Part shown: positions 16,510 through 18,792 of the stretch, piece by piece
How positions within the stretch are numbered: position 1 is the stretch's first letter
Layout of the letters: each line of letters begins with the position of its first letter
Source: Hypomesus transpacificus
Lineage: Eukaryota; Chordata; Actinopteri; Osmeriformes; Osmeridae
Direction: 5' to 3'
Assembly: GCF_021917145.1 (NCBI RefSeq)
Contig: NC_061077.1
Location: 6,941,298-7,005,297 of the forward strand
DNA: 64,000 bases
Notes under the pieces: generated by a model
What the model was told of the DNA's origin: nothing
What the model saw: the letters and a program-made list of their open reading frames with translations, nothing else
Database searches by the model: none
Position numbers and translations under genes: made by a program

Positions 16510-18792
16510 ATGGCTAACCATGAGCCAAAGCTGCTATTGGCTGTACTGAAGGAGTTGACAGCTAAAGAACTGAAGGAGTTTCAATGGCATCTAAGTCAGG
16601 AAGACTGGCTAGATGGCTTTCAACATATTCCAAAGGGCGACTTGGAGAATGCTGACAGGCAGGACACTGTAGATATAATGATACGGACCTACCGCAATGC
16701 ACCTGCTGTGGAGATCACACTCAAAACTCTAAAGGATATCAACCAAAACAATCTTGCAGATAGGTTGTCAAGAGACTACAAACCAACTGAAAGCCCTTGC
16801 AATCATGGAAAGTATTTAGCTTACAATTGATTTAGCCTTTAGTCAAATACCGTGCACAATGTAATGGTAGTTTTCTCCCCCACTCTTTCAGGCTCTCTCT
16901 CACTAGTTGCTCCTCTAACTGTCCTGCATACTACACCAGCACTTACAATGCTCCCAGCACTCACATTCAAAGCAGAGGTTAGGTTGTTGCCAATGGTAAG
17001 CCATCTTTTCGAGGATTTAATGAGCAACATTGGAAAAAGTGAATGGGAATGCAAGTGAGCCATGTCCTCTCTCTCTCTCTCTCTCTCTCATAGGAGGGGA
17101 ATAAGGTTAGATTTGAAGTGATTCCAGAAAGCATGACAACTCCCTCGATAGCACATGCTGGCTCCTCCATGACTCCTGGTGGTTTTTCTATGGCTCTTCA
17201 GTCTAGCTCTAACACTGAAGATAGAAGTAATATTGTTTGCAACAATGCTCAAGATCATAATCAGACACCAAATGAGCACGTTAAATCTAACAGTAACTAT
17301 ACTTTTTTAACAGTTGGCATTTACAGTAATACTTGAGTTAATTTGGCTATATCAGCATATCATGTGACTATATGTTTCTATACATTTTGATTGGCATATT
17401 TCAGACATGACCAAGCTTAATCAGTACAATAAGATAAGGATCAATATGCTTGGCAGTGGATCTGTGGGAAAGTCCTGCATGGTTTCTACATTCCTAACCA
17501 ACAGATTTCCCTCTGAATATGTACCATCAGTAAGTATAGGCCACTGAATATTAAGTGACTTCAAATAATTTTCTTCAGTAGGCACACTGTACTGTGTCTG
17601 CTGTCCACTGTAGTCAAACAGACAACACTTCTCTTTTCATTCTCTAACAACAGGTTTTTGACAAATACATAAAAGACATTGGTGAGGAAGGTTGTTTTGG
17701 CTCCCTTGAAATACAGGATATAACAGGTATACATCAACTCTTGACATCATTCTTCTGAATATGACAAGTTACTGTGTTATTGTTTTTAACTTTGTACTTA
17801 ACTTTTACAGGTTTGTCTGACTATGACGATCTACGCAGAATAAGTTACCCTCTGACAGATGTTTTCCTAGTCTGTTTTTCAGTGGTTTATCCTGATTCAT
17901 TTAAGGACGTGGACATGAAAGTAAGGCCTACCCCCAAACCATATCACTCAGTTACACACACAGAGAACTGGCTTGCAGAAAATACTGCATTCATTCTGGA
18001 TAACTCTGCCAAAGCTCTCACAGATTATTGATGCGAATCATTAAAACACCTCAAAGAACCCACTTGTGTGATAGCACATGCATTCTGTTCTAAATAAAAA
18101 AATGTATTCAAATGCCACACCAATCCCAGAATACAATGTTTTAGTTGGACTTAAAGTAGTAACAAGAGTGAACATATGAATGAATTTGTAAAATACTGAT
18201 AGTGTCCAGGCAGGATACTCTGTGCAGTGCCATTGTTGCAGTAAAAGGAGCTGCCAGCAAGGGACAAGAGTACAATGATCTAGTTGTATTTATGGTCAGC
18301 ATTTGACTGGTCTCGTATCAATTAACTTCATCGAAAGGAGCGTACACAGAAGCATGGTGGCAATGTAACTATTTGGGACTATTTTGAAATAGTACATCCC
18401 TTCTCTTTTCAGTGGGTGCCTGAAATCAATCTCTATTGTCCTGGGACACCTTTCCTACTGGTCGGAACTCAGATTGACCTAAGAAAAGACCCCCACACAT
18501 TGGAGAGGCTGGCCAGGAACAAACAAAAGCCAATCAATTCAGAAATTGCTAAGAAACTAGCCAGTGACCTGAAGGCATTCAAATATGTTGAGTGCTCTGC
18601 CCTTACACAGGTGGGATGCTCTCAAGTATTCTACAAGTAAGAGACAGTACATGACCACCGACATCCCAAAGATTTAACTTATGACATACATATTTGTGTT
18701 TGCAGGAAGGCTTGAAAAATGTGTTTGATGAGGTGATACAAGCTGTACTGAGGAGTCAGCAGTTCAAGAAAAACAAATGTGTGCTGTCCTAG
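16510..18792 (+). CDS. Pyrin domain-Cdc42-like GTPase fusion (candidate novel protein)
   Basis: Proposed exons: 16510-16807, 16892-16995, 17094-17292, 17405-17529, 17654-17726, 17811-17920, 18413-18610, 18706-18792, giving 397 residues. Residues 1 to about 90 are a PYD like those of fish NLRs and ASC: LLLAVLKELTAKELKEFQWH, then IPKGDLENADRQDTVDIM and VEITLKTLKDINQNNLADRL. Residues 100-200 are an unrecognised Ser/Thr-rich linker. Residues 210-397 are a Rho GTPase with P-loop GSGSVGKS, SEYVPSVFD, DITGLSDYDDLR, TQID, ECSAL and CAAX box CVLS. The four GTPase introns match those of cdc42 next door exactly. Relative to Cdc42 it has T17S, T35S, T58I, A59T, Q61L and R66D. The weak point is the first junction: the in-frame donor at 16808 is GA, not GT. 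Without splicing there, the exon ends as a 106-residue PYD-only protein at 16830. Translation could also begin at ATG 17407, giving the GTPase alone. Confidence 0.7.

What the first reader, a model, noticed from the sequence alone, without database searches (positions are those of the whole stretch)
16510..18792. Pyrin domain fused to a Cdc42-derived GTPase
Seen: an open PYD exon, two linker exons and five GTPase exons in order on one strand, with phases that join (one junction caveat) and a poly(A) signal just after the stop. Known: PYDs assemble ASC inflammasomes, and mammalian pyrin indirectly senses loss of Rho activity. I know of no PYD-Rho GTPase protein. Inferred: a fused signalling protein. 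Either the GTPase places a PYD at membranes, or the GTPase part acts as a bait for pathogen attack on Rho proteins, as integrated decoys do in plant NLRs.
Basis: partly seen in the sequence, partly recalled or inferred. Interest (0 to 1): 0.95.

Follow-up and report, generated by a model that had tools for sequence, protein, structure and literature searches.

The report
Pyrin domain beside Cdc42-like GTPase
A fish genome carries an intact inflammasome-type pyrin domain directly in front of a duplicated, probably permanently switched-on relative of the Cdc42 GTPase, and the two may form one protein, but one exon junction does not read through cleanly and there is no RNA evidence yet.

Summary
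The parts are real. The exon at 16510-16811 encodes an intact pyrin domain (PYD; Pfam E 5.8e-25), second best of 23 matches in this 437-Mb genome. Five exons at 17405-18792 encode an intact 196-aa Cdc42-type GTPase, nearest to the adjacent cdc42l. No other of the 23 PYDs lies near a matched GTPase exon (873 bp here, next 109,756 bp).

The junction is the weak point. The PYD exon ends in phase 2, but the two-exon linker frame needs phase 1. Other GT-AG routes stay in frame (12 found); the simplest uses donor 16977, skips exon 3 and gives 326 aa.

The GTPase keeps nucleotide-binding motifs and a CaaX box but has T35S, N39K, A59T and Q61L. I predict it is GTP-locked, effector-poor and membrane-tethered. 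Three residues hit by Rho-modifying toxins are changed, which weakens the bait idea. I favour a membrane-tethered PYD adaptor or modulator of ASC. No RNA and no second fish genome could be checked.

The parts
16510..16811 (+). PYD exon (exon 1), 100 codons plus 2 bases, phase 2 end; Pfam PYRIN covers residues 9-84
   Evidence: Pfam E 5.8e-25; PDB sequence matches POP1, NLRP6, ASC; donor GAAA|GTATTT 2.1 bits
16892..16995 (+). candidate linker exon 2; alternative donor at 16977 gives an in-frame route to the GTPase
   Evidence: acceptor 9.9 bits, donors 9.2 (16995) and 6.4 (16977); open in the linker frame needing phase 1
17094..17226 (+). candidate linker exon 3; phase-1 donors at 17178, 17226, 17292, 17325 are possible ends
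   Evidence: acceptor 11.8 bits; donors 3.9, 2.6, 2.8, 1.2 bits
17405..17529 (+). GTPase exon 1: start codon 17407, P-loop GSGSVGKS, Thr35 replaced by Ser
   Evidence: acceptor 5.6, donor 5.5 bits
17654..17726 (+). GTPase exon 2: residues 36-59, fast-evolving, N39K, T58I, A59T
17811..17920 (+). GTPase exon 3: switch II with Q61L, E62S
18413..18610 (+). GTPase exon 4: TQID and SAL motifs, Rho insert region
18706..18792 (+). GTPase exon 5: C-terminus with CaaX box CVLS and stop
18862..18867 (+). poly(A) signal AATAAA; none (nor ATTAAA) between 16811 and 17405
14418..15501 (+). adjacent cdc42l gene (ends CCLF), nearest paralogue and probable source of the GTPase part

Best explanation
One gene, in which a PYD exon sits upstream of a tandem duplicate of cdc42l. 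Transcription from the PYD exon splices to the acceptor two bases before the old Cdc42 start codon and gives a PYD-linker-GTPase protein. Shown: both domains are intact, collinear, compact and under constraint; the GTPase keeps its nucleotide-binding motifs and CaaX box; T35S, A59T and Q61L are present; ASC (PYD plus CARD) exists in the same genome. Inferred: the GTPase half is a GTP-loaded, non-hydrolysing, effector-poor membrane tether rather than a cycling switch; it holds a PYD at prenylated membranes, where it nucleates ASC or competes for it. The join is unresolved: either a GT-AG route such as donor 16977 with exon 3 skipped (326 aa), or the assembled exon 1 differs by one base from a form that reads into the linker frame.
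For: PYD intact, 2nd of 23 by score. Only PYD near a matched GTPase exon, expectation about 0.001. No other PYD partner: nearest NACHT match 2.3 Mb away, whereas 9 of the 22 other PYDs have one within 5 kb. No poly(A) signal between the parts. GTPase open over 196 aa at dS 1.27 from the adjacent cdc42l with dN 0.297. PYD pN 0.30-0.45 against pS 0.63-0.87 in six comparisons. 12 in-frame GT-AG routes from PYD to GTPase. ASC in the genome: PYD and CARD about 0.7 kb apart (L014). T35S and Q61L behaviour in KRAS (PMC9068649 passages).
Against: Standard joining of exons 1-2-3-4 is out of frame and stops after 130 aa. The exon-1 donor is weak and so are the exon-3 donors. Of the 12 in-frame routes the six with the highest summed score add a second internal piece, so the route is not pinned down. 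Linker exons look no more coding than noncoding sequence and have no homologue. No ISRE, GAS or kB motif in 15920-16509. No transcript and no second species. Structure prediction never ran.
Confidence: 0.5

Rival explanations
1. PYD-only protein: normal splicing of exons 1-2-3-4 makes a 130-aa PYD ending in exon 2 (or a 106-aa form by intron retention) that acts like human POP1 as a regulator of ASC. The GTPase is made from its own start codon on other transcripts or by re-initiation.
For: This is what the assembled sequence gives with the strongest exon-2 sites. POP1 is the best PDB sequence match of the PYD.
Against: The stop lies well before the last exon, so the transcript could be degraded (recalled rule). 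The GTPase exons stay intact and no poly(A) signal ends a PYD-only transcript before them.
Confidence: 0.2
2. Two unrelated neighbours: a PYD exon landed upstream of the cdc42l duplicate, and the GTPase uses exons 2 and 3 as its untranslated leader.
For: Phase mismatch. PYD matches occur at 23 places in the genome.
Against: Adjacency expectation about 0.001. The PYD is intact and constrained and its best genomic match is 52% identical, so it is not a recent stray copy. No other partner exon was found.
Confidence: 0.15
3. Integrated decoy: the GTPase part is bait for pathogen enzymes that modify Rho proteins, and modification releases or activates the PYD.
For: Pyrin and NLRP3 respond to attack on Rho proteins in mammals (PMC8084149 and PMC11781737 passages). 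Tyr32 and the CaaX cysteine are kept. Residues 36-59 evolve fast (dN 0.89).
Against: T35, N39 and Q61 are changed, so several known modifications would lack their usual residue (assignments recalled).
Confidence: 0.1

Closest known systems
CDC42 and zebrafish Cdc42, Cdc42l, Cdc42l2
   Same: Fold, exon layout, nucleotide motifs, Rho insert, CaaX box. Zebrafish has three homologues; Cdc42l2 is the most diverged, 77% identical to human CDC42 (passages of PMC7762611 and PMC9386030).
   Different: 109 of 175 compared residues (62%) shared with this genome's C9 cdc42; T35S, N39K, A59T, Q61L. No PYD is mentioned for the zebrafish proteins in the passages read ('pyrin' 0 hits in both texts).
Zebrafish GBP4 (GTPase plus CARD)
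   Same: A GTPase carrying a death-fold domain that feeds a fish inflammasome (passages of PMC9978379).
   Different: Large interferon-induced GTPase with C-terminal CARD, and its GTPase activity is needed; here a small Rho-type GTPase with lost catalytic residues and an N-terminal PYD.
Mammalian pyrin and NLRP3 as guards of Rho GTPases
   Same: They link Rho proteins to PYD and ASC signalling (passages of PMC8084149 and PMC11781737).
   Different: Indirect, through kinases; no Rho domain in the same protein.
POP1 (human PYD-only protein)
   Same: Best PDB sequence match of the PYD, E 7.3e-9; standard splicing here would make a PYD-only protein.
   Different: Here GTPase exons follow in the same apparent unit.
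GTPase-deficient (atypical) Rho proteins such as Rnd and RhoH
   Same: Predicted GTP-locked with catalytic residues replaced (comparison recalled).
   Different: Derived locally from cdc42l, not a member of those subfamilies.

Membership tests
Pyrin domain family | Match to Pfam PYRIN above the curated cut-off | tested here: met
   87.7 bits against 22.9
Pyrin domain family | Binds ASC or another PYD | not testable with these tools
   ASC filament residues K21, D48, D51 (recalled) are K22, D49, D52 here and R41 is K42, but E13 is K14 and K26 is H27 (alignment)
Cdc42-type Rho GTPase | Best match to CDC42, Rho insert, CaaX box | tested here: met
   adjacent cdc42l is the nearest paralogue
Cdc42-type Rho GTPase | Catalytic Gln61 and switch Thr35 | tested here: not met
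   Q61L, A59T, T35S
NLR (PYD-NACHT) | NACHT exon downstream of the PYD exon | tested here: not met
   nearest NACHT match 2.3 Mb away; 9 of 22 other PYDs have one within 5 kb
Integrated decoy | Keeps the residues that pathogen enzymes modify | tested here: inconclusive
   T35, N39, Q61 changed; Tyr32 and CaaX Cys kept (residue roles recalled)
PYD-Rho fusion gene | One transcript joins both parts in frame | not testable with these tools
   No RNA data; in-frame GT-AG routes exist but the standard exon set is out of frame
PYD-Rho fusion gene | Same arrangement in related fish | not testable with these tools
   No other fish genome is held; own genome has no relatives here

The most novel reading that the evidence does not exclude
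A functional PYD-Rho fusion: a GTP-locked, effector-poor, prenylated Cdc42 relative that holds a PYD on membranes and licenses or restrains ASC assembly there, a direct physical link between Rho GTPases and inflammasomes that mammals make only through kinases.
Probability: 0.4. Interest if true: 0.85.

Novelty: new variant of a known kind. Interest (0 to 1): 0.6.

Why it matters
Mammalian pyrin and NLRP3 watch Rho GTPases indirectly. A protein with both a PYD and a Rho GTPase would link the two systems physically, would let one test whether membrane tethering alone starts or blocks ASC assembly, and would be a natural GTPase with both T35S and Q61L kept by selection. If only the PYD part is translated, it is still a new fish PYD-only candidate.

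Tried and rejected
Other donors for exon 1: the three GTs near its end are phase 2; GC donors at 16792 and 16798 are phase 1 but fit the consensus poorly. Other exon-2 acceptors: by reading the sequence, none gives the linker frame from phase 2. Codon-usage test of the linker: uninformative, and weak on GTPase exon 17405-17529 too. Linker homologues: only the locus itself genome-wide at E up to 1; nothing convincing (best E 1.1) in 14 neighbourhoods fetched for 14 of the 23 PYD matches. Viral contigs: no relative of the PYD or the GTPase. Prokaryote contigs: 1 of 48 pattern matches encodes a GTPase relative. Upstream ISRE, GAS, kB motifs: none in 15920-16509. PYD tree (22 of 23 rows; L016 dropped as identical to L015): place of this PYD unresolved, 12 of 19 inner branches open. 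A second copy or haplotig of the locus: none found by DNA search, only two 30-base simple-repeat matches elsewhere. Structure prediction: not completed.

Full report
What is in the sequence. At 16510 a start codon opens an exon with a full pyrin domain (Pfam PYRIN E 5.8e-25; among 31 PDB sequences at E up to 0.01 the best are POP1, NLRP6 and ASC). At 17405-18792 five exons, split at the same residues as the cdc42 paralogues, give an intact 196-aa GTPase ending CVLS, nearest to CDC42 among 701 PDB sequences (the single best chain, 1nf3, also has Leu at position 61, while the second, 2dfk, has Gln). Between them are two candidate linker exons. AATAAA follows the stop by 70 bp; AATAAA or ATTAAA also occur at 18040 and 18093, inside a GTPase intron, but none lies between the PYD exon and 17405.

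Is it more than chance? The genome gave 23 PYD matches and 75 places matching the GTPase, in 41 loci; the tool calls such counts lower bounds. Only this PYD is near one (873 bp start to start); the next nearest, among PYDs on contigs with a GTPase place, is 109,756 bp away. A rough expectation for a same-strand pair within 1 kb is 0.001. Of the other 22 PYDs, 9 lie within 5 kb of a NACHT match (52 found) and one, L014, is followed by a CARD and is taken as ASC. The rest (12) I did not assign.

The junction problem. The three GTs near the end of exon 1 are phase 2. The frame in which exons 2 and 3 are open and reach the GTPase needs phase 1. In one search, which lists up to six donors per locus, the best listed donor is phase 1 in 13 of 15 PYD loci (L001, L003-L014, L021, L023); L005 is best in phase 0, L013 in phase 2. 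The other seven (L015-L020 phase 2, L022 weak phase 0) end in a different way and were left out of that count. Joining exons 1-2-3-4 stops in exon 2 after 130 aa. A scan of GT-AG routes with score thresholds found 12 in-frame ones; six score higher by adding a second internal piece, and the simplest (exon 1 to 16811, 16892-16977, then 17405) gives 326 aa. I cannot decide between such routes, a one-base difference in exon 1, and a PYD-only product. By chance 34 codons are open in 13% and 44 codons in 8% of noncoding draws, and linker codon usage is not above that background.

Age and constraint. Over 175 codons the GTPase is nearest to the adjacent cdc42l (pS 0.61, dS 1.27, dN 0.297); the three other cdc42 paralogues compared have pS 0.77-0.82, saturated. 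It is thus probably an old local duplicate that stayed open. Change is concentrated in residues 36-59 (dN 0.89); the WVPE exon is slow (0.14). The PYD has pN 0.30-0.45 against pS 0.63-0.87 in six comparisons of 22 possible.

What the GTPase can do. 66 of 175 compared residues differ from C9 cdc42. The motifs GSGSVGKS, DITG, TQID and SAL are kept. Q61L and A59T predict loss of hydrolysis (recalled for Ras and Cdc42). In KRAS, T35S shifts the protein to state 1, described as effector-binding deficient, and codon 61 mutations favour the active form (passages of PMC9068649). CVLS is a farnesylation-type box (recalled). Reading the module as a GTP-loaded, effector-poor membrane tether is inference.

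Mechanism. I give 0.5 to a fusion product of some form, and about 0.3 to the mechanism itself: a membrane-tethered PYD that nucleates or competes for ASC. Mammalian pyrin senses Rho inactivation and NLRP3 senses Rho activation (passages of PMC8084149 and PMC11781737). A bait should keep toxin targets; T35, N39 and Q61 are lost while Tyr32 and the CaaX cysteine are kept, so that idea is weakened, not excluded.

Known or new. Seven paper searches aimed at such a fusion or at cdc42-like genes showed none in their listings, some of which were cut to the first 15-25; two more were for mechanism. The library is open-licence PMC only. A review of fish inflammasomes has no word starting with Rho or Cdc42 but describes zebrafish GBP4, a GTPase with CARD (passages of PMC9978379). 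Zebrafish Cdc42l2 is 77% identical to human CDC42, and its expression was not detected in the work that review cites (passages of PMC7762611), though another paper lists it among down-regulated genes (passages of PMC9561152). No other fish genome could be searched, so conservation is untested.

Noticed in passing
G000 contig C18:11775104-11795252 (L015-L018, L020) and C20:4127846 (L019): A cluster of similar PYDs preceded by an open stretch like ITPGGHDIDENEWTTS with phase-2 ends; two copies (L015, L016) have identical PYDs. No NACHT match within 7 Mb for the C18 copies.
   Followed up: partly
L038 (G000 C9:2134500-2141500): The C9 cdc42 gene has two alternative last exons, ending CCIF and CVLL; the window's cdc42l showed only one, ending CCLF.
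   Followed up: no
L056 (JAIYDP010000456.1): A contig filed as a Verrucomicrobiaceae MAG encodes a Cdc42-like GTPase (47% identity in the best segment); possibly eukaryotic contamination.
   Followed up: no
window 4865-7132 (-), 12693-12971 (+), 19698-20967 (-), 23020-23448 (-): Neighbouring genes: chitinase with chitin-binding domain, an Ig V-set exon (just under the Pfam cut-off), an F-box/FBA gene, and a DNAJC11-type gene.
   Followed up: partly
L013 (G000 C56:33565-33792): Another PYD exon whose only listed donor (TCGG|GTGAGT, 10.2 bits) is in phase 2, unlike its close relatives.
   Followed up: no
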